This document shows, in pieces, positions 25,663 through 64,000 of a stretch of DNA of 64,000 bases. The stretch is from Tribonema minus. Taxonomy: Eukaryota > Sar > Xanthophyceae > Tribonematales > Tribonemataceae. The notes below the pieces were generated by a model. It made no database searches and was not told the DNA's origin. It saw only the letters and a program-made list of their open reading frames with translations. The translations under genes were made by a program, and so were the position numbers. Each line of letters begins with the position of its first letter. The stretch's first letter is position 1. The stretch spans positions 744,001-808,000 of the forward strand of contig JAFCMP010000514.1 of assembly GCA_017506865.1 (NCBI GenBank), written 5' to 3'.

Positions 25663-26322
25663 GTTACTGCCTGCTCTCTCGTCCCAAGGGTTCTGTGCCT
25701 CGAGCAAGGCCTTGCCACTCCAAGTAGATTGTTTGTTGGATCTGTGCTTCGATGAAGCGAGCTGTGAGTTCCTGCACTGTCTGGAAACGAACGGCGCAAA
25801 CACTCGAGAACGCAAATGCCAGTCGCCGCGAGCTGCTAATGCTACTGTGCTCCTGTAAGCTCGTCGAAGTTGTGTCTGCTCTGGTTTTTGATTTCAAACT
25901 TTGGGCGCCAAGGCCCAGCCAAGTTGAAGTTTATCTGCGCAGCCTCGTACTCGTACAGCACTTCAGAGTTGACCAGATGATTGTCCCGCGACCGCCACGT
26001 GTTGTCAACTATATGCCCTGATGCGCTTTTGAAATGCTTGGTGCCAGAAATCTGGTCGCTATATGGAGCAGTCACACCCTGCAAAACAATATCATTCCGT
26101 CATGCTGTGCCAAAAACATCAGTCAAATTAAGCGGGGCACTGGAGACAGAGGATTGTATTCATTGTGATGATGATAACTGAACCCCCCCGCTAAAGTCAG
26201 GCCAGCAGCCTACACACACAGTCATCTATTAAAAAAGGTGCGTACACCTGCGTTCAACGCCAAACATTATCAGCCACGTTCTAGCCAACGCCGCCCCCCC
26301 CCCCCAAAGAGCGCGCCGCGCC
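25663..26322. other. Intergenic region, CAF-1 p60 start to DUF6816 3' end
   Basis: A minus-strand frame at 25842-26084 reads somewhat protein-like (HIVDNTWRSRDNHLVN, EVLYEYEAAQINFNLAGPW) but has no visible splice partner, so it could be an orphan exon. AAGTTGAAGT occurs near 25920. A poly-C run lies at 26292-26306. Confidence 0.35.
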
Positions 26323-37300: not shown

Positions 37301-37388
37301 ACAGCCAGTGACTCTGATATGACAGGAAGATGAGCACATATATGCTGTGCGTCGTACATGTACATGTGGTGCGCATGGTGCTGCGCAG
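34376..37388. other. Gene-poor region with repeats and spacer remnants
   Basis: Long minus-strand frames (for example 34767-35462) are Cys/Arg/Leu-rich with no domain character. A block near 34740-34790 (CAACAGACATGAACTGC) matches the spacer of the BTB tandem array, as does 37010-37130, so part of the region is decayed array spacer. The minisatellite is listed separately. Confidence 0.45.
35655..36245. repeat. Diverged minisatellite, ~175-bp unit, four copies
   Basis: Blocks like CGGTTGACTTGGCGACCCAT recur near 35675, 35847, 36026 and 36210, with conserved CTGGCTGCAGCTGAAGACAT and GAGGCTTGC(A/G)GAGCTG blocks between. Identity among copies is moderate, and divergence is spread throughout. Confidence 0.7.
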
Positions 37389-38870: not shown

Positions 38871-40395
38871 ATGCGCCGCCCTGCACGGCTCGCTTGTCGT
38901 GGCTGCTTGTTGCGTTGCGGCAAGGCAGCTTTTCACGATCAAGACGCGTGGCCTGCTCTTCTCCCACACGGCACAACTGATATTTTAAATTTTTATATGC
39001 AACGAACCTCAACTTGACCTTGAAGTTGCATTCAACACTTTGTTTCTTTTTTTTTAATTTAGAAAGAAAAAAATGCATGCGCATTTCCTGCCGTAATGTC
39101 AGAGTATATGGGAGCCGGTGGTGCCCCATACCAACACTTGACTGTGGCTGTTTCACCTTGATTTTTTTGACCCCAAGGTTTCACTGCATGCCTGTGAGCT
39201 GCGCCCAGAGGAAATGATGTCATGCATGGACTCGACATCGAATTTCATCACAAGGTACCTGGCAATTTCTGTTGAGAGAGTATCTTGGCTCTTATTGAGC
39301 AGCGCACGCGTGCATGATCAGCTGCTGGACGCTCTGCGTCGAGCACCACTCAGCCTGGGTGCATCAGTATATAGGCCACAACGATCGTTCGAAGGACTTC
39401 GAAGAGGCAACTTTAACTTTCACTGGCTCATTTGACGCGATGCTGGACAAAACGGCTTTGTCTAGCGCCATCAGTATCATCCTCATGTGCCACATGTATT
39501 ATGCTTTCTGTCTACATGTAGCAATGGCTGCCAGTGCAGGCAAAATAACGCTGGTGACATTGGCACAGCGTTGAAGCAAGAAAGAGACCTGTAGGAGCAG
39601 GTGATCCTGGCAACGTCACAATGCACATGCGCATGGGTGCTCACTAGTTGACACATCTTATTTGCGGCGCCGGGAAGGCACTCATACTATAGTACTCTGC
39701 TGCTGCTGCATCAATTTGGTAGCAGTGCTCAGCATGCACTGAAGCAATCACAGCGCTCAGCCCAGCAAGGCAGTTGCTGGCGCGTACATGTAAATGAACG
39801 CAGAGGATGTCCCATGCAGCTGCGGAGGCACAATGCTGACGGCGGAAGACCGTTGAATTGCACATATGGAAGTGCTCAGCGGACATGAACTGCACTGAGC
39901 GCACACAAAGGAAAAAACTGACTGCAGCAAACGCAATACACCAGGTCCTGTGCTACTGCCCTAGTAAGCAGCGTTTGCCATGCGGTGCTTACCAATCGCG
40001 TATGCGTGCCGCCAGCTGCATGTCAGAGCTTTGGGAATAATACAAAATGTGGACAACACATGTGCAATACTGCTATGCTGGCATTAGACACCGCACTGAG
40101 GCCAGGCTTTGTGCATGCATCTGTCACATGGTGCTGCCATTCATGTAGGCTGCATGCGTTCAAGTTGGCGAATCCCCCACTACATCAGTAGTATTTGCAT
40201 ATTATTGCAATGAGCAGGCGAGACAGCGACAGCGTAGTGCATGCAGTGCCAGAAAAACGCATGGCATACGTACAACTCGTCGCACGCAAACAAGCATAGT
40301 GCATAGGCCATTATGGCAGAGCCAGTAAATGTCAACTCACAGACGGCTGCATGGACGCTGTGCATTCAGTAAGAGGTGTGCATCGCGCTGCGCGG

Positions 40396-41861
40396 CTACA
40401 CGAGCTCGACGTCAACATCAAAGTTGAGATTGCCTGCGTCATCTGCCCAGCGTTCGTACGCGGCAGCATCCCAGGCAGGAAGCTTGACCCCAAGGAAATT
40501 GGGCCAGCCCCATCCCAGATTGTCAGCTGTGCCTCTCTGAAAGGAGCGCTCTCTGTTGTTCGTTCGATCGTTGGCAACGCAGGTGACTACATACTTGCTA
40601 ATGACATATCCGGCAATGGGGCTCTTTGCACCCGTCGACTGGTTAACATGTAGCGTCATGCTGTACAGATGAGCGTGTCCTGCCAGCGCGGCAACCTTGG
40701 CGCGTACATACCACCGGTACCCACCATAAAACATGCCTCCGCTGGTCGTCACCTCTTGAGTGGAACGCTTCTCTACAGCTTTGCCGAATGCATCCGCCAG
40801 ATCATTCAGAGATACGACAGCCTTGGACTTCGCTGCCGTGATGGACGATTTTGGCCGCTCAAGCTCGCTAGTACCTGCAACTACCTGTGACGCGTTCAGC
40901 ATCTTCCGCACATCCTGCCAGCCGGATGAGGAATGCTTGCCGACGCACAGCAGCGCAACGACATTGGCTGTCCACTGAGGGAACCAAAGTGTGGCGCCCC
41001 TAGGTACCCGCTGTTGAGGTGCTTGAGCCGGATGCAGCATGCCACTGCGTCAGGCACCGATGCTAACCCGTGCTTCTGTGCCCATATGATGGTGAGCGCC
41101 ACAACAGTGCTTTCCGCCGCAACAGCAAGTTGGTCGTCGCTGAGCAATGCCACCAGCGCTGTTTCTGGCAGCTTGACCAATTGCTTGCATACCTGCTCGT
41201 CGTTCATTGCAACCTCCAGAACCCCTGCCCGCTCCAGCATCGCCGTCTGTGCCTTCTTGAGGTCAAGGCGTTCGCGCACGCTGTCAGGCGCTTCGTACAC
41301 CCTCAGCGCATCATCCCAGGCTAGGCTGGCTTGCTGGTTGAGCCACTCGGTGGCCGCACACAGCATGATCTTGACGTCGTAAGCATCCGCCAGTCGTGCG
41401 ATGGCCAGCGCCCGCTCCACCGTCATGTCCTCTGCAGGCAGCTTCCCGTGGTACATGCCCCACAAAACACCCTCGAAAGCGGCGACATCCGCTTCGTCGT
41501 CGAGCTTGATTTCGATGCGCACGGGCCTCTCGGCGCCAGGGTAGCTAATGACCTTGCTGCGGAGCACGCTGCTGTGCATGATGAGAACTGTGCTATGAAC
41601 ATGCAACAGCTCGACTCCCGGACGCAATAATTCAGGTTCGCCAGCCGCGTTCTCTCCTGCTTCAGCCTTGCTACTCGCCCCTCTTTTCCTCTTCCGGCTT
41701 GCATTACTCTCGCTCTGTGAGAAAGCATCAACACGCCCTAAAGTGAGCACAATATCAGAATAAGCTTCTTCCCCCCACAGACGTGCTACCTCAAACACTG
41801 CATCTGCAGCTGCCTGAGTTATTTCACTGGCAGGAGCTGCCGGCGCCGCAGGAGCGCTTAT
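40396..41861 (-). pseudogene. Broken BTB-BACK-MATH copy B
   Basis: It is colinear with copies A and C but carries two lesions. The codon matching their initiator ATG is ATA (41859-41861), with no nearby in-frame ATG replacement. A one-base deletion at about 41000, just before the FPQWTANVVALL segment, shifts the frame. Downstream of the shift the frame is open to a normal end. Basic insertion, BTB, BACK and MATH-like parts are all still recognisable, so inactivation is recent. A sequencing error could explain the frameshift but not also the start loss. Confidence 0.75.
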
Positions 41862-43260
41862 ATGCGCCGCCCTGCAAGGCTCGCTAGTCGTGGCTTCTTG
41901 TTGCGCTGCGGCAATGCAGCTTGTCGCCTTTTCAATGATCAAGACGAGCCAAGATGCCTCCTCCCACGGAAGTCACAACACATGCTCTTCAAGTTGAAGT
42001 TTCACGGTTGCTGAAATTATGGCTTGATTCCTGCCCGTGGAGTGCGGGTATATATCCGGTGTGGTGCCCTATATCCAACACTTGACTGTGGCTGTCTCAC
42101 TGCATGCCTGTGAGCTGCACCCAGGAGAAATGATGTCATGCGTGGGGACACGACATCGAAATTCATCGTGATCACAAGGTGCTGGCAATCTCTGTTGAGA
42201 GAGTATCTTGGCTCTTATTGAGCAGCGCACGCATGCAGTCTTCTCAAAGCAATGTCATGCTGTGTTCAGCTGCTGGACGCTCTGCGTCGAGCACTACTCA
42301 AGCATTGGTGCCATCAGTAGTAGCAAGATGGAAGACTCAACAAGGCAGTTTCAACTTGCACTCTTTTTTGCAGACGGCACTTCTTTGTCCAGCACCAACG
42401 TTGGCACCGGTACCAACCTCACGTGCAAAATGAATGGTTTGAAATAATTCGATTTACAGCAATGGCTGCCAGTGCAGGCAAAATACCGCTGGTGACATTG
42501 GTGAGAAACCTGTAGGAGCAGGCGATCCTGGCGACACCGCCATGCACATGCGCATGGGTGCTCACTAGGTGATACATCGTATTTGCGGCGCCGGGAAGGC
42601 ATATCCTCTGCATTGGTAGCAGTGCTCAACATGCACTGAACTTGAAGCGACCACAGCGCTCAGCCCAGCAAGGCAGCACGTTTGGAATATGCACAATGTG
42701 TCATGTGCGCAGAGGACGTTCCATGCAGCCGCGAGGCACAATGCTGACGATGGGAGACCGGAGAGATGTGCATATGGAAGTGCTCAGCAGACATGAACTC
42801 CACTGAGCGCACGCAAAGGGAAAAAACTGACTGCAGCAAACGCAATGCACCCGTGCCACTGCCACTGTCGCAAGCAGCGTATGCCAAACAGTGCTCACCA
42901 CTTCGTGTGGCCAGCAGCACGGTTGAAATGGGAACAGGATATCAAAACATATGCAATGCTGCTACGCTGGAACCGGACACCGCACGCAGCCCAGGCTTTA
43001 GGCCTGCGTCACATGGTGCTGCCATTCGTGTACGCTGCATGCCGACTTCATGCTGGTGAATCCCCCACAATCAGCAGGCGGGTACATCGACAGCGTGGTG
43101 CATGCAGTGCCAGAAAAACGCATGGCATGCCGACAACGCACCGTACATGAACAAGCCTAGTGCCTACGCCAATATGGCAGCAGAGCCAGTGACTCTCAAC
43201 TCACGAACAGACCGGATAGGTGCTGTGCATTGTACATGAGGCATGCATCGCGCTGCGCGG

Positions 43261-44742
43261 CTACAGCTCGGCGCAAACCTCAAAGTTGAGGTTGCCCGCG
43301 TCATCTGCACAGCGTTCGAACACATTCGAATCCCAGGCAGCAAGACTGATCTCAAAGAAATCGGTCCAGCCCCATCCTAAATTGCCGGCTGTGCCTTTCT
43401 GAGTAGAGAACTCTTTGTTGTGCGCATGATCCTTGGCAGTGCAGGCGACCGCAATGTTGCGCTCGACAAATCCACCAGTGGAGCTGTTTGCGCTCACAGT
43501 TTGGAGAATATGCACATCTACGAAGTAATGGGAAGATGCATCGGGGTCAGGTCGGACTGTTGCTTCTAAGCGCCAGCAATACCCACCATAGTACGTGCCG
43601 CTGCTGGTCAGCACCTCTTGTATAAATTGCTTCTCTACAGCGTTGCCGAAAGCTGCTGCCACATTAATTAAGGACATAACAACCTTGAACTTTGCTGCCG
43701 TGATGGATGACTTCGGCCGCTCAAGCTGACTGGCACGTACGAGTACCTGTGGCGCGTTCAGCATTGTCCGCACATCCTGCCATGCAGATGACAAATGCTT
43801 GCCGACGCACACCAGCGCAACGACATCAGCTGTCCACCGAGGGAAGAAATGCGTGACGCCTGCCAGGTACCCGCTGTGAAGGTGCTTGAGCCGGATGCAG
43901 TTTGCCATTTGGTCGGGCACTTTTGCCAACCTGCGCTGCTGCGCCCACTTGATGGTGAGCGCCACGACCGTGCTTTCTGCTGCGACAGCGAGTCGTTCAT
44001 CGCTGAGCAGTGCCACCAGCGCTGTTTCTGGCAGCTCAATTAACTGCGTGCGTACCTGCTCGTCGTTCATTGCAACCTCCAGGTCCCCTGCCCGCTCCAG
44101 CATCGCCGTTGTCGCCTTCCCCAGGTCGAGGCGATCGCGCACGCTGACAGGTGCATGGCACACGCGCAGCGCATCATCCCAGGCCAGGCTGGCTTGCTGG
44201 TTGAGCCACTCGATGGCGGCCCACAGCACGATGTTGACGACGTAAGCATCCGCTAGCCGGGCGATGGCCAGCGCCCGCCCCACCGTCATGTCCTCTGCAG
44301 GCAGCTTCCCCCCGTGATACATGCCCCACGAAACATCCTCGAAAGCGGCGACATCCGCTTCGTCGTCGAGCTTTATTTCGATGCGCACAGGTCTCTCGGC
44401 GCCAGGGTAGCTAATGACCTTGCTGCGGAGCACACTGCTGTGCATGATGAGAATTGTGCTATGAACATGCAGCCGCTTGACTTCCGGAGGCACTGGTTCA
44501 GGTTCGCTAGCTGCGTTCGCTCCCTGCTTCATGGCAGCAGCGTTGCTACTCGCCGCCCCTCTCTTTCTCTTGCGGCTCGCATTAGTGTCGCTCTCTGAGA
44601 AGGCATCAACAGGCCCAAAAGTTAGCACGACATCAGAATAAGCTTTTTGCCCCCATAGACTTGCTACTTCAGACAGTGCTTCTGCAGCTGCCTGAGCTAC
44701 TCCACTGACAGGTGCTGCTGGCGCCGCGGGAGAGGCGCTCAT
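43261..44742 (-). CDS. BTB-BACK protein with C-terminal MATH-like domain (copy C)
   Basis: This is an intact 493-residue single exon starting MSASPAAPAAPVSG. Architecture is the same as copy A: BTB with an inserted SRKRKRG basic patch, a BACK-like helical middle, and a C-terminal MATH-like sandwich (MYYGGY-equivalent TYYGGYCWRL, GNLGWGWTDFFEISL, GNLNFEVCAEL). An extra Gly lies in the YHGGKLP segment. The C-terminal domain is more diverged from A and B than the BTB part, suggesting faster change in the presumed substrate-recognition domain. The role is inferred as a CUL3 adaptor. Confidence 0.75.
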   Translation of the reverse strand: MSASPAAPAAPVSGVAQAAAEALSEVASLWGQKAYSDVVLTFGPVDAFSESDTNASRKRKRGAASSNAAAMKQGANAASEPEPVPPEVKRLHVHSTILIMHSSVLRSKVISYPGAERPVRIEIKLDDEADVAAFEDVSWGMYHGGKLPAEDMTVGRALAIARLADAYVVNIVLWAAIEWLNQQASLAWDDALRVCHAPVSVRDRLDLGKATTAMLERAGDLEVAMNDEQVRTQLIELPETALVALLSDERLAVAAESTVVALTIKWAQQRRLAKVPDQMANCIRLKHLHSGYLAGVTHFFPRWTADVVALVCVGKHLSSAWQDVRTMLNAPQVLVRASQLERPKSSITAAKFKVVMSLINVAAAFGNAVEKQFIQEVLTSSGTYYGGYCWRLEATVRPDPDASSHYFVDVHILQTVSANSSTGGFVERNIAVACTAKDHAHNKEFSTQKGTAGNLGWGWTDFFEISLAAWDSNVFERCADDAGNLNFEVCAEL

Positions 44743-45625
44743 GGCGAGCGAAAAGATTTTCGCAAACCAGGACTATGTTGAAGTTGAAGACCTCAGGAAA
44801 GAGTGAACTGTTGAACTGTTTTGAAGTTCGAAAAAGAAGTTTCAGTTGAAGTACACTGTTGAAGATTAAAACCGTTGTTCGGATCTGAAAGCGAAAGATC
44901 ACCTTGCACCTCACACATGCTATGTACATTATGATGCAGACAACTTTGCGCCTCACACATGCTACATGAGAATGTTTTCATTCTTCACAGAAAAGGAAAA
45001 GGCACAGGTGTGGCGAAGATATCATGCAGTGAAGATAACATATTTGCATGAAAGTGCTTGATCATACGTGCACAACGGATTTGACAACGGAGCGTGCATG
45101 TTGCATGAGCCATATGAGTTGATCCATCATTTTTTTAAAACAATCATATACTTCAAAGTATCATAATTCTCCCACGTTGTCGCACCTCATTGCCTAACAA
45201 CCTACTGGAATTACTCACCGTGCCAAGCCCTTGTCACCTGACACACATGCCATAGAGCGACGAAGCAGCACACACACACACTTTGGGGCCCTCTGCATGG
45301 TTTCTAGCCCCTGAAAGTCCCAACCCAACCAACATTGCCACACTCTTGTGCGCAGACACGTGCCGCCTCCGTCAGTGAAATGGCCACAACGCCTGTTGAC
45401 ACCCAGCCTTCAGCCACCGTGGTGACCTAGTTGTGTACGTGTGTAAGTGTGCAAACGCGCCGAAGTGTTGATGGCGGATACAGCTGCAACTGTCAACCGA
45501 TCTCACTGCCATCGAACTGTGCACCGCCGGTGTGGTGAACCCCCTTTAAAGTTGAGCCACCGAGGCTGCAGTGGCGTGCGCTGCCGTCATCGCTGAGCCA
45601 TGTCACCGACTGGACAAGGATCACA
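44743..45625. other. AT-rich intergenic region
   Basis: No gene is seen. TTGAAGTTGAAGAC at 44778 and several TTGAAGT/GTTGAAG words cluster at 44776-44870, directly upstream of BTB copy C. Confidence 0.55.
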
Positions 45626-51034: not shown

Positions 51035-54000
51035 ATGGTGTTTTCTGGGCGCCCTTTGTCCACCGTGGCCGTGTGCCTGGCCGCGCTCCTGGTGATCAGG
51101 AGCAGCTGTGCCGCCCCTCTTGACGCGGCTGTAATCACCGAGGTCGACTCCTACCAGGGCCTGCTGGATGTGGCTGGCACGGCAAGTAGACATTCCCCTC
51201 TGCTCCGCACTGCTTCGTGTTGCTGCGATCGCACTGCGTATGATAAGATGGCGAACCTTTCCGTCACTTGAGGACACACCCCGTGAAGTGTCTGTCGTGA
51301 TTCCTGCTGCATGAACTCCGGTTTGCACTGAAGAAGCTTAACACAATGCGTTGGGTTAACAAATATCTGACGCCAGTGTTGTGCGCAAGGGCAGGATCAT
51401 GTTCCGAATAACGTGACAGTCACAAGCTCTTCAACTTCAGCATGTTCGCCTGCAATTGCGCATGAGACCATTGATGCTGCTGGAACCTGGTTTAGGGGTG
51501 TTAGAAGTTTTCAACTTTCTGGAAAATGGTGCGAAGGAGTTAACACAAGTTGTCGTTGTGCGTATAATATATATATAATGCATTGATATATATATGCATG
51601 TACCTGGCTTTGACAGAAAATGACCTTGACAGCGCCGGTCAAGCGAAGAGAAGAGATTACCATAGTGGTTCATGAGGCATGTACGTAATGCTCTCAACAT
51701 AAAATTTGCCTGAATGAGCCGGCCCGGCCACATGGACTGTTTTAGCCATATCACTCGCCAGCTTGGTGCTCTTGCATGAGCGTCAAGGCAGCAGCAGCGT
51801 ACATGGGAGAAGCACATTTTGTGTGAGACGCGTGGCAACTCAGGCACGACAGTTGTGGTGAGAAAACTTGTACGTATCGCTGTTACCTACACCATGCAAC
51901 CAGGTGAGCGCACCGCGTCTGTCTTACGGACACTGGAGTTGTGGTTAGAAAACTTGTACGTATCGCTGTTACCTACATCATGCAATCAGGTGCGCGCACC
52001 GCGTCTGTCTTACGGACACTGGGCGAGTGTCATGTAGACGTCACACTAGTTGGCGTCACGTGGACACGCTCCAATGGTCGGGCCCTGAGGCGGTGACTGA
52101 GCGGCGAGCACGGTGTGTACGTTTATTGTTCAATGTTTGCTGCATGCGTACAGCATACTGCAAGTGCTAACATCACCTTATACAAACATCAATACATACC
52201 GATGCGCAACATCAGGTGGACGACACGGACACTGGCCAATTTGCTGCTCGCCTGACCATGCACCTCCTTACATGAACATACATACATACCGATGCGCAAC
52301 ATCAGGCGGATGACAAGAGCACTGGCCAGCTTGCTGCTCGCCTGACCATGCACCTCCTTACATGAACACACATACATACCGATGCGCAACGCCAGGTGGA
52401 CGACACGGACACTGGCAAGCGGTTTGAGCGCGAGGTGATGATGCTGCTGTACGAGGGCGGCAAGTGCACGGCGGACTTCAAGAAGCACGGCCTCGACGAG
52501 TATGGGCGCCTGCAGCCGGAGGACGTGGCGCTGGTGGCTGCGGACGTCAACAAAGTGGACCAGGTCAGTGTATGTTTTACTCTGCTCTGGAAGTATACTG
52601 ATGTATGCACTTGTTCATGTTTCTTAAAGTCAAAAACGCAAGGTTGTTATGGAGGACGTGGCGCTGGCGGCCGCGGACGTCAACAAAGTGGACCAGGTCA
52701 GTGTATGTAAAAGTACATATTACTTTGCTTTGCAAGGATACACATGTATGCACTTGTGTATTTCTTAAAAGTCAAAACGCAAGTTTGCTCTAAAGGACGT
52801 GGCGCTGGTGGCCGCGGACATCAACTAAGTGGACCAGGTCAGTATATGCATGTTACTCTGCCTTATAGTATTCGTGTATGCACGCGCATATTTAATACGA
52901 AGTTCTGGAGGACGTCGCTGGTCGCCGCGGACGTCAACAAAGTGGACCAAGTCAGTGTACATACATACATGTTACTTTGCTCTGGGAATATGCACATGTA
53001 TTGCACATGTATATTTTCTGATCATGTTTGAAACGCACATTTTTTCTGGAGGATGTGGCGCTGGTGGCTGCAAACGTCAACAAAGTGGACCAGGTCAGTG
53101 CACATATATGTTGGCTAACGTCGAAATTCAAAAGCTGTCCTGGAGGACGTGGTGCTGGTGGCCGTGGACGTCGTCGCTAAATTGGACCAGGTCGGTGTAT
53201 ACACATATTACTGCGCTTTGGAAGTTTACAACAACAAGTACAGAAAGTTTATGAAGTAAAACCTCCCAAGTCAATCCTGGAGGATGTGGCGCTTGTAGTC
53301 GCGGAGTCATCAAAGGGGATTAGGTCAGCGTGTATGCTATAGAAGTACTCTGTACACATTTATTCCCCCAAACATGTATGTTTGCACGTGTATATCCAGT
53401 ATGTCCCCTTTTTGAAGTATTGTTTGCTGATGTAGTTAGCAGGAGGGCAGGCATGAATGGTGAGGAGTGGCCTACAATGTAATGGCCCTGCTATCGAAAG
53501 AAATTTTGAACTGCGACTCGGTATTTGCTGGCGCAAGCATGTCCACGATGCAACGGGCGCGATGGCAACCTCAGCAAGAGTGTCATACCTCCCCTTGTGA
53601 CTCTTTTTCGTGGCAGCTCTTCCTGGTGAAGTTTGGCATGCCGCCGACGCTGTCGACAGCATGCCGTGCCTGACTTCATTCTTTTTGAAAAAGGTCAATC
53701 GAGGCCATGTTTACTGTGAGCATACTTTCGCACAGTGCAATGCTCATGCTGGAAGGTCATTCAAAGTGCCCCCCCCCCCCCCTCCTCTCCCCCCTCGCTT
53801 CTTCAATTTGCCAACAGGTCTTCCTGGAGAAGTTTGGCATCGTCGATGACGGCGACGACATGCCGTGCCCCACGGCCGTCGTCATCCGCCAGCGCAGCCC
53901 CCTGCAGAACCCCACGTTTGAAGTTGTCGGCTCCGACCCCGATGACCCGTTCGCAATCGCGGACGGCGTGCTGAAGAGCCAGGAGGTTCACATCGGCTCT

Positions 54001-57000
54001 GTGAATGATTATGACTTCCCGATCAAGGTCATGTTCGTGTGGCGCGATGGCAAGGAGAGGCCGCACCTGCGGCGCCTGGAGCCCGGGCGCGAGTCCTGGA
54101 TGAAGACCTACAGGTTAGCATACTTCAACATGGAGTTGAAGTGACCATTACTTGAAGTTTGGAGTTGAAGTGTTGGTGTGTCGGTACTTCGGTGTTGAGC
54201 AATTTGCGGGCACTTGTGGAGGCAGGCAGTTTGATATGAATATTGCATTTTGAAAGAGTACGAAGTGTTTGTGTGTGTAGACGCAGTCGTGTAGTGCGGC
54301 ACAGGAAAGCATACTTCATCATGGAGTTAAAGCAAAAAAGGGCATTCAAGTATGGGGGCTAGGTTGAGGAGTGTACGATGTGTAGGCACAAGTCTGGGGC
54401 GTGCTGGAAAGGCGAGGCAGCACTGAGGTGACCAAGTTCTAGAAAATTTCAATTGTTGGCGGGAGCGTCCAGGGCTTGAAGTTGTGTGCAGCCATGCAAG
54501 CCTCCCTGCTGTGCCAGCGGACACTTTACCGAGTCTCCACAGTATGCTCCCGTCAGCAGGGCGCATGTTGAGTAATTGTTGACCCAGAGCTCACCCTCTC
54601 ACTGCGCATCCATGTTCAACTGAAGTCTGGCGCAATCCCTGCTCCCCCCCTCACTCTGCGCTGGAAACAGGTCGACGGAGCTCGTGGCGCGCGCGCTGGA
54701 CGATGGACGCGAGCTGCAGCGCATGCGCGTGCGCTGGCACGGCCTGTTCACCGTCGCGCACCGCAACTGCAACATTGAGAACTGCGGCATCGTGGAGAGG
54801 AAGGAGGTGCGCGCTTGACATACTTCAAGTACTTGAAGTGCCAAATACAGAACGTCGAGAATGTGTATTGTAGTGTTGCGCTTGAAAGTATAAATACATG
54901 CTCGCATGCTGGCACGGCCTGTTCACCGTCGCGCACCGCAACTGCAACATTGAGAACTGCAGCATCGTGGAGAGGAAGGAAGGTGCGCGCTTGACATACT
55001 TCAAGTAGTTGAAGTATGCGTATGTACAGTGTGTGTACAACGTGTCTGCACGTGCCTGTGTAGTGGAAAGGTGTGTGCGCATTGAGCAGAGATGGGGGCA
55101 TGTGCGATACCAGCCAGAATCAAGGAGCAGAATGTGTGGCACTTCAATGTTGAAGTTCAGGGATGATCACGCAGATGGTTACCACAACGACCATTGCATC
55201 TGACGCTGACTGCGCCGTGTGCGTCTCTTTACGCGGGCAAAGCAGGTGCAACTTCAATGTTGTAGTTCAGGGATGATCTCATAGATGATCACGAAATGCC
55301 CAGTGCCCAGTGCAATAATTAACAAATGTGCCATGTCTGTTTGCGCTTCACTGGCGGCAGGTGGAGCTCGATGAGGAGGAGATCCGTGCGCGCGAGCAGA
55401 ACGAGAAGTTCCGCGTGCGCAACAACGTGCAGCAGCCGGTCGGCCTCCCGCGCTTCACGGACGTGGGCTTCAAGAAGGTGAGCCACCCCAACATACCTAC
55501 ATACCCTTATCATATCACCATGCCTACATACCCAACGTGCAGCAGCCCGACGGCCTCCCGCGCTTCACGGACGTTGGTTTTGAGAAGGCGAGCCGCCACA
55601 ACACACCTATGCACCCTTATCAACCATGCATACATACCCCTTGCGTGTCAACACACCCATACATACTCAGCAATGTGACCACCCCCTACATTACTTGGAC
55701 ATGGGTGGGTGCCGTGTGCACACAGTGCTGAGCAGAGCGAGCGGTGTCAGCGGTTTCAGCATATACAGGGTCTCAAGAGTGCTGCGCCTCTCTCTGCGCA
55801 TGCAATGATGACAGCGGCACGCAGCACCTTTCCAGCATTGCTCACTCAATGCAGCGCAAAACCCGATGCTGCACTCAGTGCTCAGTGTCGTTGCAAGTCA
55901 CGGATTGCACGTTGCGCTTGTTCGTTAGAACTTACGATGCACGTCTCCTGCTTCCCCAGTTGAAGTTTCCGCATGGAGACAAGGATTAATCGGCTGCAAG
56001 GGCGTACATAAGGCATGTGACTGCATCGCCACAACCTAGCATGCATGCTCGCCGTTCACCTTACTTCTTGCTGCTCCACATTCGAAACTGCTGTTTGTGA
56101 CCCTTCTCTGCTGCGTAACTGGATGTGTTCTCCACCGCACTTACTCCACTTGCATGCTTTGCATCGCTAATTGCCTACTTCTATCCGCTACTTTCAAACC
56201 CCCGGCCCCCAGATCACTGAACTCACTTGACTTGTGTGCTTCGCATTGCTGAAAGCATTTTTCTATTCCCCCCCCTCCCCCAGATCCGTGTCCCCGACGA
56301 CGTCTGGGACATGCTGGTCACCTATTACCGCCAGAACAAGCAGAACCCCAAGATTGAGCGGTGGGGCAAAGGCAACGTCTACACCAACAACCTCGAGGCC
56401 CCCTCGTACATGGTCAACCTGCCGGAGACAGGGCCCCTTAAGCCCGCTATCTTCAACGGTCTGAGGCCCATACTGGAGGAGTGGAGCGGAGTTGAACTTG
56501 TGTCGACGTCATGCTACGGCATCCGCGCGTACACGCGCGGGAGCTGGCTCGCGAACCACGTGGACACGCGCGCGACGCACACCATCAGCGCCATCATCAA
56601 CGTTGACCAGGAGGTCAGTGGCATTGTGTGTGTTGTATATCATGTGATTGAAGTTGATGTTTGAAATCCATCACCGCCGAGGTCAATTTCACATTGTGGT
56701 TGAGGTTGAAGTTGGCTCGCGATCCACGTGGACACGCGCGCGACGCACACCATCTGCGCCATCATCAACGTCGACCAGGAGGTCAGTGGCACGTGTCATG
56801 TTTCATTGTGGTGTAGTTGAAATTGAAGTTGTAATGCTGGTGAACCACGTGGACACGCGCGCGACGCACACCATTAACGCCATTATCAATGTCGACCAGG
56901 AGGTCAGTGGTGGCATCAACATACATGCTTCAAGTACATGCATTTTACATGTTCCATGTCGTTTACAAGCTTGTACATGCTACATGATGTGGTTGAAGCT

Positions 57001-57764
57001 ATAGTCGAAGTTGGCTCGCAAACCACTTCGACTCGCGCGTGACGCGCACCATCAGTGCCATCATCAACGTCGACCAGGAGGTCATTGTCGATTTCTCAAG
57101 TACAGTTGCAGCGTAACCTCATTGAAGTTGAAGTTGAAGTTGACGCGCTAACCAGGTCGACATGCGCGCGACGTACACCATCAGCGCCATCGTCAGCGTC
57201 GACCAGGGGGTAGTTCACGTGACTCCTTTGATCTTATGATTGAGATTGAAATCAGCATGTGAAGCTGGCTGGCGGCACCTTTCTGCCAGTTGAAATTGAA
57301 GTTGACATGTGAAGCTGGCCTGACTGGCTGTGCGCAACGCTCGACATCAGCGCCATTAATGTCAAGCAGGCGACCAGTCGCGGTACACAGATTCAAGACG
57401 ACTGTGAGTGAAAATCCAGTTAAAAGTGCGACGCTTGCGTCAGCACAGTGTCTCAGGCGCAGCACCCGTGCGCAGAGGACCACCCGCACAGCACAAAAAG
57501 TCAGCACTGCGCACCCGCTCACTCTCCTTCTCTCTTCACTGCCGCCGCCGTCGCCGCCGCCAGGTCAACAAGGACTGGCCCCTGAACATCTTTGACCACG
57601 CGGGCAACGACCACAACATCACCATGGCGCCGCGCGACATGGTCCTGTACGAGTCTGCGACGTGCGTGCACGGCCGCCCCTCCACCTTTGACGGCCAGTT
57701 CTACGCCAACATGTTCATCCACTACAAGCCCACGGACCCCTCCAAGTGGATCCAGGAGCGGTAG
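51035..57764 (+). CDS. Secreted prolyl 4-hydroxylase with VHL-beta-like domain
   Basis: This Fe(II)/2-oxoglutarate dioxygenase hydroxylates proline in secretory-pathway or wall proteins. Seven exons (51035-51181, 52396-52563, 53818-54113, 54671-54806, 55361-55477, 56284-56613, 57564-57764) join in phase to 464 residues. Residues 1-26 are a signal peptide. Around 165-200, VHIGSVNDYDFPIKVMFVW then RLEPGRESWMKTYRS resembles a VHL beta domain. The catalytic domain starts about 289 (DVWDMLVTYYRQN, GNVYTNNLEAPSYMVNL). Iron ligands are HVD (H380, D382) and the distal H434 in VHGRPSTF, followed by YANMFIHY. The last residues, WIQER, are not an HDEL retention signal. The exon 1 donor is GC (GCAAGT). 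At least five introns contain copies of flanking exon edges. The motif set is typical of ochrophyte P4H-like proteins. Confidence 0.9.
51851..52022 (+). repeat. 86-bp tandem duplication in hydroxylase intron 1
   Basis: Two copies (from 51851 and 51937) share AGAAAACTTGTACGTATCGC and GCACCGCGTCTGTCTTACGG with a few differences. No exon sequence is obvious in this unit. Confidence 0.85.
52201..52380 (+). repeat. Two 90-bp upstream echoes of hydroxylase exon 2 acceptor + start
   Basis: GATGCGCAACATCAG plus the first two dozen bases of exon 2 (GTGGACGACACGGACACTGG) occur at 52201 and 52291. The true acceptor follows at 52381. The period is exactly 90 bp, and all copies keep the AG acceptor. Confidence 0.9.
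52650..53330 (+). repeat. Six-copy echo array of hydroxylase exon 2 end + donor
   Basis: The true donor is at 52564. Copies of GAGGACGTGGCGCTGGTGG and AACAAAGTGGACCAG/GTCAGT recur with donors at 52697, 52838, 52951, 53094, 53191 and 53324 (spacings 133, 141, 113, 143, 97, 133). The units include intron-head sequence. The last copy is the most decayed. Confidence 0.9.
53612..53675 (+). repeat. Upstream echo of hydroxylase exon 3 start
   Basis: GGCAG followed by CTCTTCCTGGTGAAGTTTGG and later AGCATGCCGTGCC mirrors the true acceptor and first 50 bases of exon 3 at 53813-53870, about 200 bp upstream. Confidence 0.75.
54298..54335 (+). repeat. Short echo of exon 3 donor-side intron
   Basis: CAGGAAAGCATACTTCATCATGGAGTTAAAG mirrors the true exon 3 end/intron head at 54111-54140, with the donor GT lost. 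Confidence 0.6.
54906..54990 (+). repeat. Echo of hydroxylase exon 4 end + donor
   Basis: About 75 bp of exon 4 tail, from TGGCACGGCCTGTTCACC to AGAGGAAGGA plus GTGCGCGCTTGACATACTTC, is repeated with the donor at 54982, 175 bp after the true donor at 54807. One added A disrupts the exon frame. Confidence 0.9.
55533..55600 (+). repeat. Echo of hydroxylase exon 5 end
   Basis: AACGTGCAGCAGCCCGACGG through TTTGAGAAG repeats the exon 5 tail 110 bp downstream of the true donor (55478). The copied donor is GCGAGC instead of GTGAGC. Confidence 0.85.
56712..57385 (+). repeat. Echo array of hydroxylase exon 6 end + donor
   Basis: The true donor is at 56614. The tail encoding NHVDTRATHTISAIINVDQE recurs with donor positions 56782, 56903, 57081 and 57210 (spacings 168, 121, 178, 129). 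A decayed fifth copy lies at about 57340-57380. Donors change from GTCAGT to GTCATT to GTAGTT with distance. The copied segment encodes the HVD iron-binding motif. GTTGAAGTTGAAG-type words lie between copies. Confidence 0.9.
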
Positions 57765-59591
57765 TCGCGCTGCTGCTGCAGCAGTGCTCTGCGGCGCAGC
57801 GTGCAGGGGGGGGGCGAAGGGGGGGCAGCGCTTTCCCGGAAACGAGAGAGCCGAGTGGGAGAGTTGTGTCGTCAGCGCGCTCCGCTCGCGCACACAGTAC
57901 GGCCCCCATTACGGCGCAGGGGTTGAGTCAGGGGTTGGTATACCCTTTCGGAGGCTGTAGGTGAAGTACATCTCTCCCCCTGCCCCCCCCCCCCCCCCCC
58001 CCCCCCCCTCTCTCGTGGGGGGGCACTTTCCCCTTCAACTTTATCCCCCGTGTGGTATCCATCATGTACGCACGACAATTTGCATAGCCGAGGGGTGGGA
58101 GGGGGGCGAGGTGCCAGTGCCGGGCCGGTTTGTCCTTGCATCGTAGTAACAGTGTTGTTCTTTGGGAGGGGTCAGCTGGGGCTGCTGGCTTTGTTCGCCT
58201 TAAGCGATCCCTTCCGCTGCTCTGCAGTTAGCGTAGTATACAGCCATGTACATGCGCGGTAAAGAACACAAATGTGTGATTTTGCAGCTTTTCCACCGTG
58301 CTGCTTTTTTGCGCCATGCGGTGTTGCCGCTGTTGCCAAGTGCCTGTGCCTGCCGTTGCAACTGCTTGCTGTTCAGAAAGATGTTGTAAATCTGTGACAG
58401 CAGCGGAACCTGTGAGCATTCTTGAAGGTATTCATTTTCATGCAGCATCGCGTCTGTCGGATGAGGGGTGTTTTGTGTGTGTTTGCAAACGTATTGAGAA
58501 AACACGACAAACACATGTTTAGAGCATTCAGATTCATGTCTAGTAGACCCCAGCCATGTATGAATACAGAGCATCAGCAAGAAGCGGTACGGGGGAAAAA
58601 GCGACAAGTGGGACGTTGCCGTTGCCAACTTTCAGGTATTTACTGCATCTTTTTTTATTTATTCAATGAGAGGCAAGTATGTAGGTCGAGCTTTCATGTG
58701 AGCTCAAATATTGAGCTAAAGTAGCTACAGCATGCAAGCAGCCACCAGCATTTGCATTTTGATAGTTTTGAACATCAGATTTATGTCCTGCAGACCCCCA
58801 GCCATGTACGAATACAGAGCATCAGCAAAAAGTCGTACGGGGAAAAGTAACAACTGGAACTTGACAGATACCAAAGATAGTGTGCGAATACCCATGACTA
58901 TGGTGGGGTCTCAATGCGTCCAGCAACTTGATGTTTACACAAGGGGCTGTCATTCAAGGGGCTGGCCAACAGGAGCCGCCAGGATCAGTTCACCAATAGG
59001 AGCGGTCATATGACCATGTAGCATCTGTTGACTAGGGTTGAGATGAGTGTTCACGGGGACTGGGTAGCGAATTATAAAGTCAAAGGGCCCCGTGGTCTGT
59101 GCTGGCTTGTGGTATGTGGCCATTGACGCCGCGTTGAGAGCAGCCAACTAGGTAGACGCATACGAGGTGCAATGACACAACGATTGCGCATCAAGCAACG
59201 GTTTCTTGCTAAGAAAGAGCACTGCCCATGGACCCATGCAGCGAGAGTCGTATCTGTACGCTGCATGTGTGACGTTGCTAAAAGCTGCTCGAATGATGTG
59301 TGCACATGACCTTTGCAGCCGAGCTTCTTGACGGAGTTCATGCGCAGACTGTGCTGCTTTTGTTCTCTGACTGCACCGTCATGACCGAGTAGGCAAGAGT
59401 TCGCCTTGCTGAACGTACTCGATGTCAGGTTCAAGTTCAGCCTGAACGCCACTGTCTGGAACGTGCAAGAGGTGACAGCCTTCACTCCCATGACTCACTG
59501 AGCGCGTCATGTTAAAGTTCAACTGAACGACGACGTCACTAATTCAACCTTGAAAAAAGTGAGCGCCTCAGCTACACCAGAGAGCGCTAGC
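57765..59591. other. Intergenic region with a ~250-bp-spaced direct repeat
   Basis: No gene is seen. A run of about 30 C lies at 57980-58010. A block of about 85 bp, containing CCCCAGCCATGTATGAATAC then AGAGCATCAGCAA, occurs at 58535-58620 and 58781-58865. Confidence 0.5.
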
Positions 59592-61060
59592 ATGAGCGCT
59601 CCTGCAGCGCCGGTAGCACCTGCAGAAGCTGTCAGTAGATTCACTCATGCAGCTGCAGAAGCAGTGGCTGCAGCAGCACGCCTCTGGGGCAACGCAGCCT
59701 TTTCGGATGTGCTGCTTCTCGTTGGCCCTGGTGAGGCCTTCTCAAAGCGCGGGAGCAAAGCGAGCCTCAAAAGGAAGAGAGGGGCGACTAGCAAGGCTGC
59801 CAAGAAGCAGGGAGACAATGCGGCTAGCGAACTCACAGCATTGCCGCCCGGAGTCAGGCAGCTGCATGTTCACAGCACCGTCCTCATGTTGCACAGCGGC
59901 GTGCTTGAGGCCAAGCTAACCCGTTGGAGCGGCGCCGAGAGGCCCGTGCGCATCGACATCAAGCTCAACGACGAAGCAGATGTCCCTGTTTTTGAGGATG
60001 TCATATGGAGCATGTACCACGCGAAGCTGCCTGCAGAGGACATGACGGTGGAACGGGCTGCATCGCACGACTGGCGGATGCTTACGACGTCAAGCTCGTG
60101 CTGTGTGCGGCCACTGAATGGGTCAACCAGCAAGCCAGCCTGCCCTGGGACGATGCGCTAAGGGTGTGCGATGCACCTGTCAGCGTGCGCGATCGCCTCA
60201 ATCTCGAGAAGGCACAGACGGTGATGCTGGAGCGAGCAGGGGACCTGGAGGTTGCAATGAACGATGAGCAGGTACGAAAGCAGTTACTCGAGCTGCCAGA
60301 AACAGCGCTGGTGGCACTGCTAAGCGATGACCGACTCGCTGTTGCAGCCGAAAGCACGGTGGTGACGCTCACCATCAAGTGGGCGCAGCAGCACAAGTTG
60401 GCAACAGTGCCTGACGCAGTGGCATGCTGCATCCGGCTCAAGCACCTCAACAGCGGGTACCTCGCGGGCGTCGCGCATTTCTTCCCTCAGTGGACAGCCA
60501 ATGTCGTTGCGCTGCTGTGCGTCGGCAAAGCATCGCCGTCCGCATGGCAGCATGTGCGGCAGATGAAGAACTCGCCACATTATACTTGCAGGTTTGAACG
60601 GCCGAAGTCATCAACAAGGGCAGCAAAGTTCAGGGTTGTCGTGTCTCTAAATGATGTGGCTGCAGCATTCGGCAAGGCTGTAGAGAAGCGTTCCGCTCAA
60701 AGGGTGCTGGCCAGCGGCAGCTTGTACTTTGGTGGGTATCGGTGGCATGCATCCGCCGATGTCGCCGCCACTCTGCGAGAAGCTCGTCAAAACGGCATGG
60801 TTTTGTATGTTCACCAACTGACGGGTGCAAACAGCCCCATTGCTGGATATGTCACCCGCAAAGTTGTAGTCACCTGCATCGCCAAGGATCAAACAGACAA
60901 CAAAGAGCTCTCTCAACAGCAGGGCACGGCTGACGATCTGGGATGGGGCTGGGTCAATTTCTTTGGGGTCAACTTTGCTGCCTGGGATGCCAATGCGTTT
61001 GAACGCTGGGCAGATGACGCGGGCAATCTCAACTTCGATGTGTGCGCCCAGCTCCTGTAG
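59592..61060 (+). pseudogene. Frameshifted dispersed BTB-BACK-MATH copy D
   Basis: This lies about 15 kb from the tandem array and in opposite orientation. It has an intact start (MSAPAAPVAPAEAV), BTB with basic insertion (SLKRKRG), BACK-like region and a well-preserved MATH-like end (LYFGGYRWHA, DDLGWGWVNFFGVNF, GNLNFDVCAQLL). A four-base deletion near 60058-60062 removes part of the ERALAIARLADAY segment and shifts the frame. The N-terminal product would end soon after the BTB domain. The second half remains open for 350 codons, so loss is recent, or the site is a sequencing artefact. Confidence 0.7.
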
Positions 61061-61735
61061 TTGCGCAGCGCACTGCACGCCACATGTACAGGGGCTCGAG
61101 TTGCAGAGCGATGCGCGCGCCTGACATCTCCGAGGGCTATGTTCAGGCTACTGCGCTACTGCGTGGTGCCTCGCATGACGTACTGCCTGCGCACCATTCC
61201 CACTACGCAGACAGCGCCAGCCGCCAAGGAGTGGGATCGGGTCACGCAGTGGGTGCTTGAGCACTCAATGGGCCTGCAGGCTTTGCATTGAAAAACCGCA
61301 CCCTGGAACCGCAGCCGCAATATCGGCTGCGGGATGGACCTTTGGCAGTGATGAGCACAGAAACGAAAGGTTTTAAAGAGTAGCGTGAAGCGTCCCTCCT
61401 GTCACGCAAGTGCTAACCTGTAGCAGACACACCACTCACAACCACAGGACACCAGCAGAGCGCCGCAGAGCACAGCAGAGCACAGCGCAGCAGGGAGAGC
61501 AGCAGCGGAGGCATTCCAGCGCAGCAGTAGCAGCAGCGCACACGCAGACAGCAAGCTGCCTGCGCCATCAGCAGCAATCACTGCGCAATTGAGCCGGATC
61601 AGCACAGGAGCAGCAGAGCAGCGCCATCCACAGCAGTAGCCAGCAGCAATAGCAGCAATTGAGCCGACAGCCACTTGTTTGCCATTGAGCCGGAGCTGCG
61701 TGATACAGCAGCAGCGCAGCAGCAGCAGCACAACC
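61061..61735. other. Intergenic / upstream region of the poly-Gln gene
   Basis: No gene is seen. From about 61430 the sequence becomes CAGCA/CAGAG-rich, grading into the CAG-rich coding region, and probably represents the 5' UTR. Confidence 0.45.
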
Positions 61736-64000
61736 ATGTCCATGCCGGAACGCAGCAGCAGCAATTACAGCCGTAGCAGCAATACTTCAGCCTTGTCAGC
61801 TACAGCAGCTGTCTTAATGCCGCAGCGCCGAGCTCCCATTGCTACAGCGGTACTGCTGCAGCAGCAATCAATGCCACACCAGCAACAGCAGATGTACCAG
61901 CAGCAGCTGTACCAGCAGCAGCTGTACCAGCAGCAGCTGTACCAGCAACAGCTGTACCAGCAGCAGATGTACCAACAGCAGCTGTACCAGCAGCAGTATA
62001 TTCATCTGCAGCAGCAAGTTTGGCAGCAGCAAGCGGCGGCTGAGCAGCAAGCGGCGGCTGAGCAGCAAGCGGCGGCTCAGCAGCAGCAGCAGCAGCAGCA
62101 GGCGGCGGCTCAGCAGGTGGCGGCGGCGGCCCAGCAGCAGCAGGCGGCGGCTCAGCAGGTGGCGGCGGCGGCCCAGCAGCAGCAGCAGCAGGCGGCGGCT
62201 CAGCAGGTGGCGGCGGCGGCCCAGCAGCAGCAGCAGCAGGCGGCGGCTCAGCAGGTGGCGGCGGCGGCGGCCCAGCAGCAGCAGCAGCAGGCGGCGGCTC
62301 AGCAGCAGCAGCAGCAAGCGGCGGCAGCAGCGGCGGCGGCTCAGCAGCAACAGCAGCAAGCGGCGGCGGCGGCGCAGCAACCGGCTCAGCAGCGACAGCA
62401 GCTGCAGCTGGACGCGGCGGCTCAGCAGCAGCAGCAAGCGGCGGCAGCAGCAGCGGCAGCAGCGGCGGCGGCTCAGCAGCAACAGCAGCAAGCGGCGGCG
62501 GCGGCGCAGCAACCGGCTCAGCAACCGGCTCAGCAGCAACAGCAGCTGCAGCTGGACGCAGCGGCTCACTGGCAGGTACTGCCAGCGGTGCAGGACTTGG
62601 ATGTGGCACGCGCAGCCTTGGTAAAAATTGCAGCTCAGCACGCGGCGGCGCAGCAGCAGCCACGGCCGTCTCTTCTTCCACAACAGCCGCAGTCGCCGCA
62701 TCCACAGCAGACGCCGCCGCCACTTGCTGCGTCCGCTGACACCGATTCCGAAGCGGACGATGACGGGGATGAAGACGAGAGCGACTCCGACGAAGGGAGC
62801 CGTCCACTTCGCGCCGCACGGGCGCCCCTGCTGCTGACGCTGCCACGGCGGCCGCGGTCGCCATCGCCCGCAGAGTGCGACGGGGAGGGTGACAACGGGG
62901 AAGAGGACGTCGACTTCAGCAACGTCTGCACCTTCGACTTGGACGACTCAGACGAGGAGGAGAGGGCACCCAAGCGGGCACGCACGGAGCGGCTCGTGGG
63001 CGTGGCGGCGGAGCCCGCAGCGACGCCGCGTCAGCCGCCGCAATCACTCGTGACAGAGAACGAGCTGCGTCGCGCGGAATGTCTGGCCAGCGTGGAGGAA
63101 AGGGGGGACCGCACGTACACGATGCACGTGACCAGCGCGCTGGCATTCATGGAGTTCTACTGCCCGGAGCTGTCGACCTACAACTTCCTCGCCGGCAACC
63201 ACCGGATGTTCCCGGTCAGCCAGGAGGACAGCCGAGAGCTGGGGGTTGAGCACACGGCAGCCGGCAACAAGACGGGCGTCGGCAAGCATAGGTACGTGGT
63301 GGCGCGCATCACGCTCTTCTGCTTGCCTTGGCATGACTGAGTGCATCTCATGGCACGCGCTGACACCTTCTTTCGCGTCCCCCTGTTCGCAGGATCGACA
63401 ACCGGTACACGCTGTCGCCCGCGGGCAGAGAACTGGTGGCCCTCGGAAAGCTCAACAGGCAGGTTTTCAGGCTGCTGCTGCACTGCGCCGGCGGCAGCGG
63501 CGGTAGCGGGGCGAACTGCCGCAAGAACCCGGGTGCGAAGGGACAGTGGTGCGCCGCCGCCGCCGGTGACGGATCGTGCGCGCCCGGCTGCACGTGGCGA
63601 AGGGGGGCGAACCATCATTGCGCGGTCGAAGTGCGCGTCACTGCGACCATCGCGCAGGTGTTGAAGCACACTGTGCAATTGCAGATCACGGGGCGGCACA
63701 CCGCGGATGGCGTCGTGCCCGTGCCGGTCGACTTGCAGAAACTCGACCTCAGCCTCATCTTCGACGACTACATCCGCAACACGTGCCAAGCGGGAGCCGT
63801 GTGCCGCAGCAAGGCGATACGGGACGCGCTGGCACTGGTGCCGCAGGGGGCCAGACTCACCGGCAGGTGCCACCTCGGGCGCATACACTACAGCAACGTG
63901 GTGTCGTACGCCGCGAGACTGACGTGCAGCGCCGTCCCCGGCACGTTCACCGCCTTCGACGCCGTGGTCCGCCAACACGCTCTCAGCATGGCCACCCCGC
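61736..64000 (+). CDS. Poly-Gln/Ala acidic protein with Cys/His-rich C-terminal region (partial)
   Basis: Exon 1 runs from ATG 61736 (CAACCATGTC context) to 63291. A 101-bp intron (GTACGT donor, TTCGCAG acceptor) follows, and exon 2 is open from 63393 to the window edge without an ATG. Residues about 45-280 are Gln-Ala repeats, first YQQQL/M pentads and then QQAAAQQVAAAA units. An acidic stretch of Asp/Glu/Ser and a basic APKRARTER patch follow, suggesting a nuclear protein. The conserved-looking part includes TMHVTSALAFMEFYCPELS and, after the junction, RYTLSPAGRELVALGKLNRQ and Cys/His residues spaced like a zinc site (CRKNP...WC...CAPGCTW...HHC). I do not recognise the family; a transcription regulator or a transposon-derived DNA-binding protein are options. 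Confidence 0.6.
61870..62570 (+). repeat. CAG/GCG-rich coding repeat
   Basis: Two arrays lie in frame. TACCAGCAGCAGCTG is repeated about seven times at 61895-61997. CAGCAG/GCGGCGGCT units of 45-54 bp follow to about 62560, including two near-identical blocks around 62340-62400 and 62465-62530. All minus-strand long frames here are shadows. Confidence 0.85.

What the first reader, a model, noticed from the sequence alone, without database searches (positions are those of the whole stretch)
52650..53330. Six decaying copies of an exon's 3' edge with its splice donor line the downstream intron
After hydroxylase exon 2, the coding tail plus GTCAGT donor recurs six times over 760 bp, at 97-143-bp steps. 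None has an acceptor. Divergence rises with distance, as if new copies arise next to the exon. Each is a decoy or alternative 5' splice site, so the spliceosome must choose the first. I know of no standard element class that does this. It suggests intron growth by repeated tandem duplication across the exon-intron border.
Basis: seen in the sequence. Interest (0 to 1): 0.92.

Follow-up and report, generated by a model that had tools for sequence, protein, structure and literature searches.

The report
Exon edges copied repeatedly into introns
In this alga-like genome the ends of exons, splice sites included, have been copied again and again into the neighbouring introns, leaving rows of decaying look-alikes; the flagged case is one example of a widespread pattern that seems to show introns growing outward from their exons.

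Summary
Exon 2 (52396-52563) of a seven-exon gene is followed by six copies of its last ~46 nt plus GT donor, 97-143 bp apart. The same gene has such copies at the donor edges of exons 2, 4, 5 and 6 and, mirrored upstream, at the acceptor edges of exons 2 and 3. In 13 kinesin genes chosen without regard to repeats, 23 of 43 local-duplication arrays touch a detected exon edge against 6.4 expected; with exons masked, 14 of 37 against 4.1. In 250 kb of other sequence with ab initio exons, 15 of 51 against 5.5. Nearer copies tend to resemble the exon more (11 of 16 multi-copy arrays fall with distance, 4 rise), and most changes are private to one copy: new copies seem to arise at the exon and push older ones outward. 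Decoy sites are mostly intact but rarely give in-frame, stop-free exons, so the exon-proximal site is presumably used. Best reading: recurrent tandem duplication across exon-intron borders. Why borders are favoured is unknown; RNA evidence is missing. Ten paper searches found no description of it.

The parts
51035..57764 (+). Seven-exon gene, 464-residue product; exons 51035-51181, 52396-52563, 53818-54113, 54671-54806, 55361-55477, 56284-56613, 57564-57764
   Evidence: Joined exons translate without a stop until the last codon; introns GT-AG except a GC donor in intron 1. The 'hydroxylase' name is recalled from motif; Pfam gave no family even at E 10.
52518..52563 (+). Template: last 46 nt of exon 2, followed by donor GTCAGT
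52651..52702 (+). Donor-edge copy 1 (46 exon-like nt + GTCAGT)
   Evidence: 44 of 46 exonic letters identical
52793..52843 (+). Donor-edge copy 2
52907..52956 (+). Donor-edge copy 3
53048..53099 (+). Donor-edge copy 4
53142..53196 (+). Donor-edge copy 5 (donor GTCGGT)
53279..53329 (+). Donor-edge copy 6 (donor GTCAGC)
52171..52395 (+). Two upstream copies of exon 2's acceptor edge (90-bp unit; exon-like parts begin near 52216 and 52306)
   Evidence: (D4)
53614..53670 (+). One upstream copy of exon 3's acceptor edge, 201 bp before it
   Evidence: (D10, D11)
54897..55015 (+). Copy of exon 4's donor edge with its following intron (original from 54722)
55533..55639 (+). Copy of exon 5's donor edge; the GT donor now reads GC
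56710..57222 (+). Four copies of exon 6's donor edge (starts 56710, 56836, 57009, 57138)
57331..57378 (+). Weak fifth exon-6 donor-edge copy (approximate place; .77 over 47 nt)

Best explanation
Short tandem duplications (unit 75-533 bp, median about 175) recur across exon-intron borders in this genome. SHOWN: the duplicated piece takes in 21-111 nt of exon, the splice site and some intron. On the donor side the copies lie downstream, on the acceptor side upstream, so all end up inside introns. Copies near the exon tend to be most like it, and most changes are private to one copy. INFERRED: most events start again from the exon, which selection holds fixed, and push older copies outward, so introns grow from their exons like a conveyor and keep a rough time series of past exon states. 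INFERRED: copies are tolerated because exons are recognised from inside (exon definition), so the nearest acceptor-donor pair wins and outer decoys are skipped; copies carrying most of an exon are missing, perhaps because they would compete. UNKNOWN: why borders are favoured. Renewal of arrays that keep one selection-fixed copy may explain part; a splicing-linked cause of breakage remains open.
For: Edge excess in three tests: 23 of 43 arrays against 6.4 +- 2.2, maximum 14 of 500 runs; exon-masked 14 of 37 against 4.1 +- 1.8, maximum 9 of 300 runs; ab initio exons 15 of 51 against 5.5 +- 2.0, maximum 12 of 300 runs. Copies at 15 of 45 donor and 19 of 45 acceptor edges; antisense 2 of 45 and 2 of 45. 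Near copy more similar in 57 of 77 pairs, less in 19, one tie; within-array permutation P .00015 over 16 arrays.007 over the 13 outside the window gene. Private columns 25 of 29 and 25 of 30. Edge arrays span more units, median 3.2 against 1.7, p 4e-4. Exonic identity .90, intronic .80-.82, as expected if only the exon is fixed. Exonic share of the unit mean .32, maximum .56, against a null mean of .44. A toy neutral model gives edge shares of .27 (unmasked) and .14 (masked), below the observed .53 and .38.
Against: 4 of 16 multi-copy arrays run against the gradient and the nearest copy is best or tied in only 10 of 16. Among arrays with a single alignment the edge excess is weaker: 7 of 24 against 2.7, P .013. 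With exons masked the larger span of edge arrays is not significant (p .085), and at E 1e-10 only 6 of 26 masked arrays run up to an edge (no null computed there). Intronic identity of nearest pairs is no higher at edges (.838, 23 arrays) than elsewhere (.858, 15 arrays; p .26), so edge arrays are not clearly younger. Exon-middle queries also hit in 6 of 57. In the exon-6 array copies 3 and 4 share 4 changes, so not every copy came straight from the exon. No transcripts, related species or reads were available.
Confidence: 0.62

Rival explanations
1. Uniform neutral tandem duplication everywhere in introns, with exon edges over-represented only because the exon is held fixed by selection and its copies stay recognisable longer.
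For: Local duplications are common genome-wide. Exonic divergence is half the intronic. Arrays away from edges lie uniformly in their introns (.245 against .25 expected, 17 arrays). The toy model gives an edge share of .27 from this effect.
Against: The excess persists with exons masked (14 of 37 against 4.1; binomial p 3e-4 against the toy model's .14). Stop-codon borders, where a fixed coding edge should behave alike, show no copy in 13, against 34 of 90 splice edges (p .004); dropping one doubtful stop and the window gene it is 0 of 11 against 28 of 78 (p .015). That set is small and was put together.
Confidence: 0.22
2. Older tandem arrays homogenised by gene conversion from the exon: near copies are converted more often, giving the gradient and the star-like pattern without new copies being born at the exon.
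For: The gradient and the private changes are also expected from distance-dependent conversion. Indels are about eight times rarer in the exonic than in the intronic part of the alignments, more than the 1:2 ratio of substitutions.
Against: Intron-derived parts of near copies are also more alike in the exon-2 array (.78 for copy 1.48 for copy 6), which conversion confined to the exonic part would not give. At one column each the exon differs from 4 of 4 (exon 6) and 5 of 6 (exon 2) copies, so recent conversion is not complete.
Confidence: 0.15
3. The copies have a function: alternative or decoy splice sites kept by selection, for example to regulate splicing.
For: GT kept in 25 of 30 aligned donor copies and AG in 27 of 36 acceptor copies.
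Against: That retention is about what ~10% neutral divergence per site predicts (.81, my arithmetic). Of 52 intact decoys 21 extend the exon by a multiple of 3, and only 7 of these leave any frame free of stops. Changes in the copies do not look codon-like (by eye).
Confidence: 0.08
4. Remnants of whole-exon tandem duplication (spare or mutually exclusive exons).
For: Copies are exon-derived and carry splice sites.
Against: Copies hold one edge only, with 21-111 exonic nt (28 arrays); exon middles are found in introns in 6 of 57 tests.
Confidence: 0.03

Closest known systems
[quoted passage not shown] Drosophila cases PMC2891723, passages; potato case PMC4974935, listing and start of abstract only)
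   Same: Local tandem duplication involving exon sequence and splice-site-like motifs.
   Different: There the duplication makes a new intron out of exon sequence. Here introns already exist, the piece includes intron, and copies accumulate inside the intron at both borders without changing the exon.
Introner elements (PMC7789003, passages; PMC9860276, listing and start of abstract only)
   Same: Repeated sequences tied to introns and splice sites.
   Different: Introners are copies of one element at many sites. Here the units are made of the neighbouring exon's own edge; the exon-2 array returned no second place in the genome.
Ordinary intronic tandem repeats / minisatellites (recalled)
   Same: Head-to-tail units, varying copy number.
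   Different: Placed preferentially on exon edges, tending to decay outward from the exon, with an exonic part of limited depth.
Recursive-splicing ratchet points (recalled; PMC8605326 and PMC6110457 seen only in listings)
   Same: Intronic AG|GT-like sites: most exon-2 donor copies read CAG|GTCAGT.
   Different: The bases before the GT are exon-derived, not a pyrimidine-rich acceptor; no splicing intermediates could be examined.

Membership tests
Tandem duplication arrays (general) | Adjacent head-to-tail copies of one unit | tested here: met
Intron gain by tandem genomic duplication | New intron bounded by the two duplicated AGGT motifs, intron body derived from exon | tested here: not met
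   Copies carry donor plus intron flank and lie within an intron that has its own acceptor
Introner elements | Same element dispersed at many loci | tested here: not met
   The exon-2 array returned one place only; in 11 of 13 kinesin genes the units found are copies of their own neighbouring exon edge. Units of different genes were not compared with each other.
Introner elements | Terminal inverted repeats / target-site duplications | not tested
   Only a general inverted-repeat scan of 51800-54200 was run
Tandem exon duplication | Copies with both splice sites and whole exon body | tested here: not met
   One edge only, 21-111 exonic nt in 28 arrays
Recursive splicing sites | Pyrimidine tract plus AG immediately before GT | tested here: inconclusive
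   AG before the GT in 5 of 6 exon-2 copies, but exon-derived sequence upstream (by eye)
Recursive splicing sites | Stepwise lariats or junctions | not testable with these tools
   no RNA data

The most novel reading that the evidence does not exclude
DNA duplication in this lineage is linked to splicing itself: something about splice junctions (co-transcriptional spliceosome assembly, R-loops, or chromatin at exon borders) breaks or re-copies DNA there, so introns lengthen by accretion from both exon ends and each keeps a time-ordered fossil series of its exon. What survives would also map how much exon a decoy may carry before the spliceosome is fooled.
Probability: 0.2. Interest if true: 0.92.

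Novelty: new variant of a known kind. Interest (0 to 1): 0.7.

Why it matters
How introns lengthen, and how the spliceosome ignores nearby near-perfect sites, are old questions. Here 34 of 90 tested splice edges (28 of 78 without the window gene) carry one or more copies of themselves, so one genome offers many natural tests of splice-site choice. The copies may keep past exon states: in the exon-6 array all four aligned copies have GTC where the exon now reads GTT, so synonymous changes could be polarised without an outgroup. If the splice-site link holds, it would name a mutational route to intron growth that needs no transposon.

Tried and rejected
Mobile element: rejected for the exon-2 array, no second place returned; no Rfam match at gathering score and no tRNA in the window. 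Protein identity: Pfam none at E 0.001 or 10; solved structures none at 0.001 for the whole protein and, for its last 176 residues at E up to 10, 7 matches to inorganic pyrophosphatases with E .68-.96 that I take as chance; protein database off. GC-rich hot spots: arrays away from edges have the GC of their intron (.545 against .549, 17 arrays). The 86-bp unit at 51851-52022 as a decayed acceptor-edge copy of exon 2: weak, resting on 11 shared letters (shuffle P .005 and .013). Stop-codon control: one search tested 35 window ORFs of 250 codons or more; 4 had a downstream match (stops near +15403, -16868, -25027, -61868; the third lies in the donor-edge array at 24526-25122), none among the 5 I then kept as coding-like or the 4 BTB-like ORFs, one of which (-40896) may end at a premature stop. 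With 3 kinase genes and the window gene that is 0 of 13, or 0 of 12 without the doubtful one. Organism: no RuBisCO small-subunit match, 92 light-harvesting matches, so perhaps an alga with a red-lineage plastid; not identified. The 20 stretches were arbitrary, not randomised: 8 on the window's contig, 8 on four contigs named, 4 elsewhere. Kinesin genes: 52 of the 132 matches used, taken for exon number and what could be fetched, before their repeats were seen; 7 of the 52 contain in-frame stops, so their ends are less sure. Exon ends there were refined by a simple score; low-scoring ends fall back to the HMM end. One counted edge copy (L031, 16 nt, 7 nt from the edge) is doubtful. The ab initio exon finder got 7 of 16 kinesin exons of three loci with both ends as in my annotation, missed one and added two, although trained on those genes. 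Papers: ten searches found no description of this; Gao and Lynch 2009 and Hellsten 2011 are not held and are known to me only by recall and from a reference list.

Full report
OBSERVATION. The window lies in an unnamed 158-Mb, 554-contig eukaryotic genome. The gene at 51035-57764 has seven exons that join into one clean reading frame. After exon 2 the last 46 exon nt plus donor recur six times, far beyond chance (96 against a shuffle maximum of 35).

MORE OF THE SAME IN THIS GENE. Self-comparison and a sensitive edge scan show donor-edge copies after exons 4 (one), 5 (one) and 6 (four clear, one weak), and acceptor-edge copies before exon 2 (two) and exon 3 (one). Together the arrays fill 2186 of 5335 intron bases. 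Duplications that touch no edge also occur in the gene (51851-52022; 55141-55306).

A GENOME-WIDE PATTERN. Local direct duplications occur in 18 of 20 arbitrary 10-kb stretches (none in L007 and L026). To test placement I used kinesin genes found by Pfam PF00225, 13 loci with 52 matched exons. Of 43 arrays, 23 touch a detected exon edge (9 donor, 14 acceptor edges); randomly shifted arrays give 6.4 +- 2.2, maximum 14 in 500 runs. Because fixed exons could make edge copies easier to see, exons were masked: 14 of 37 arrays still run up to an edge against 4.1 +- 1.8, maximum 9 in 300; with other E limits 14 of 39 (1e-3), 11 of 31 (1e-6) and 6 of 26 (1e-10), without nulls. An ab initio exon finder recovered exons 2-6 of the window gene exactly, missed exon 1 and cut the last exon short, and was less exact in three kinesin loci. 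With a slightly higher threshold it gave 15 of 51 arrays at edges (11 donor, 5 acceptor edges) against 5.5 +- 2.0, maximum 12 of 300, in the 20 stretches plus window 1-50000; with looser exons 19 against 6.2 +- 2.3, with stricter ones 14 against 4.0 +- 1.7.

EDGE SCAN. In the window gene plus the kinesin genes, 15 of 45 donor edges and 19 of 45 acceptor edges have a copy in the adjoining intron; antisense controls 2 of 45 and 2 of 45; exon-middle queries 6 of 57. Without the window gene it is 28 of 78 (counted; used). Two of the 13 kinesin genes (L027, L035) show none.

ORDER AND DESCENT. The nearer copy is the more similar in 57 of 77 pairs, the farther in 19, one tie. Pairs within an array are not independent, so permuted the order within the 16 multi-copy arrays: 11 fall with distance, 4 rise, 1 is flat, P .00015; without the window gene 9 of 13 fall, 3 rise, P .007. 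The nearest copy is the best or tied in 10 of 16. In the exon-2 array 25 of 29 variable columns (edge plus donor) are private to one copy; in the exon-6 array 25 of 30. Copies made from their neighbours would share changes; they mostly do not, except copies 3 and 4 of exon 6, which share 4. At two synonymous sites the exon seems to be the one that changed: it differs from 5 of 6 copies (exon 2) and 4 of 4 (exon 6).

RATES. Exon against nearest copy, 9 donor and 14 acceptor edges: exonic identity .90, intronic .82 at donors and .80 at acceptors, about the 1:2 ratio expected if only the exon is held fixed. Gaps per 100 letters are 1.2 and 1.6 in the exonic against 10.2 and 12.5 in the intronic part, a larger contrast than that ratio predicts. 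Decoy sites keep GT in 25 of 30 and AG in 27 of 36 aligned cases, near neutral expectation; I see no sign that decoys are purged or preserved.

SPLICING. Of 52 intact decoys, 21 would extend the exon by a multiple of three and 7 of those leave some frame free of stops. The copies are therefore unlikely to be routine exon. Because decoys lie outward on both sides of exons, use of the innermost exon fits exon definition (recalled concept); pairing across the shortest intron would take the decoys. This is inference from annotation by homology and frame.

LIMITED DEPTH. Units take in 21-111 exonic nt; the exonic share of the unit averages .32 and never passes .56, against a null mean of .44 (P .0018 for the mean; no run of 5000 reached so low a maximum; 28 arrays). 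Selection against decoys that carry too much exon is one explanation.

WHY BORDERS. Edge arrays span more units than others (median 3.2 against 1.7), though masked data leave this at p .085. Arrays with one alignment show a weaker excess (7 of 24 against 2.7, P .013), and intronic identity is no higher at edges (.838 against .858, p .26). A toy neutral model with a fixed exon, whose settings I chose, gives edge shares of .27 and .14 where .53 and .38 are seen. Stop-codon borders show no copies in 13, or 12 without a doubtful one, a small set put together afterwards. Renewal at a selection-fixed end plus an unknown preference for splice junctions is the best I can offer.

LIMITS. No RNA, no relatives, no reads, about 300 kb of a 158-Mb genome besides the window, organism unidentified, protein function unconfirmed. 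The ten paper searches returned nothing that describes this pattern; most subscription literature is missing from that library.

Noticed in passing
window 51182-51187: Intron 1 appears to start with GC (GCAAGT) instead of GT; some donor copies elsewhere also read GC.
   Followed up: partly
window 24526-25122, minus strand: Array of about 134-bp units touching the donor edge of an ab initio exon (25050-25670), apparently another donor-edge case.
   Followed up: partly
window 8793-8984, minus strand: Two 97-bp copies that by eye read like an exon end followed by GTGAGC; not among the edge arrays.
   Followed up: no
window 58517-58860: Duplication of about 98 bp, 248 bp apart, downstream of the gene, so not all local duplications are at exon edges.
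   Followed up: no
window 37295-44743 and 59591-61090: Four related long stretches (BTB-like by eye, recalled), 76-82% alike in DNA, mostly over about 1.5 kb; one may hold a premature stop.
   Followed up: no
window 56614-57300: The intron after exon 6 is rich in TTGAAG-like runs (one pure stretch at 57122-57143).
   Followed up: no
L024 1843-2397 and 5867-6314: Two arrays with the same 81-bp period, a multiple of three, about 70% alike; possibly coding repeats, though the exon finder called no exon in L024.
   Followed up: no
window 61880-62553: Long CAG/GCG-rich repeat.
   Followed up: no
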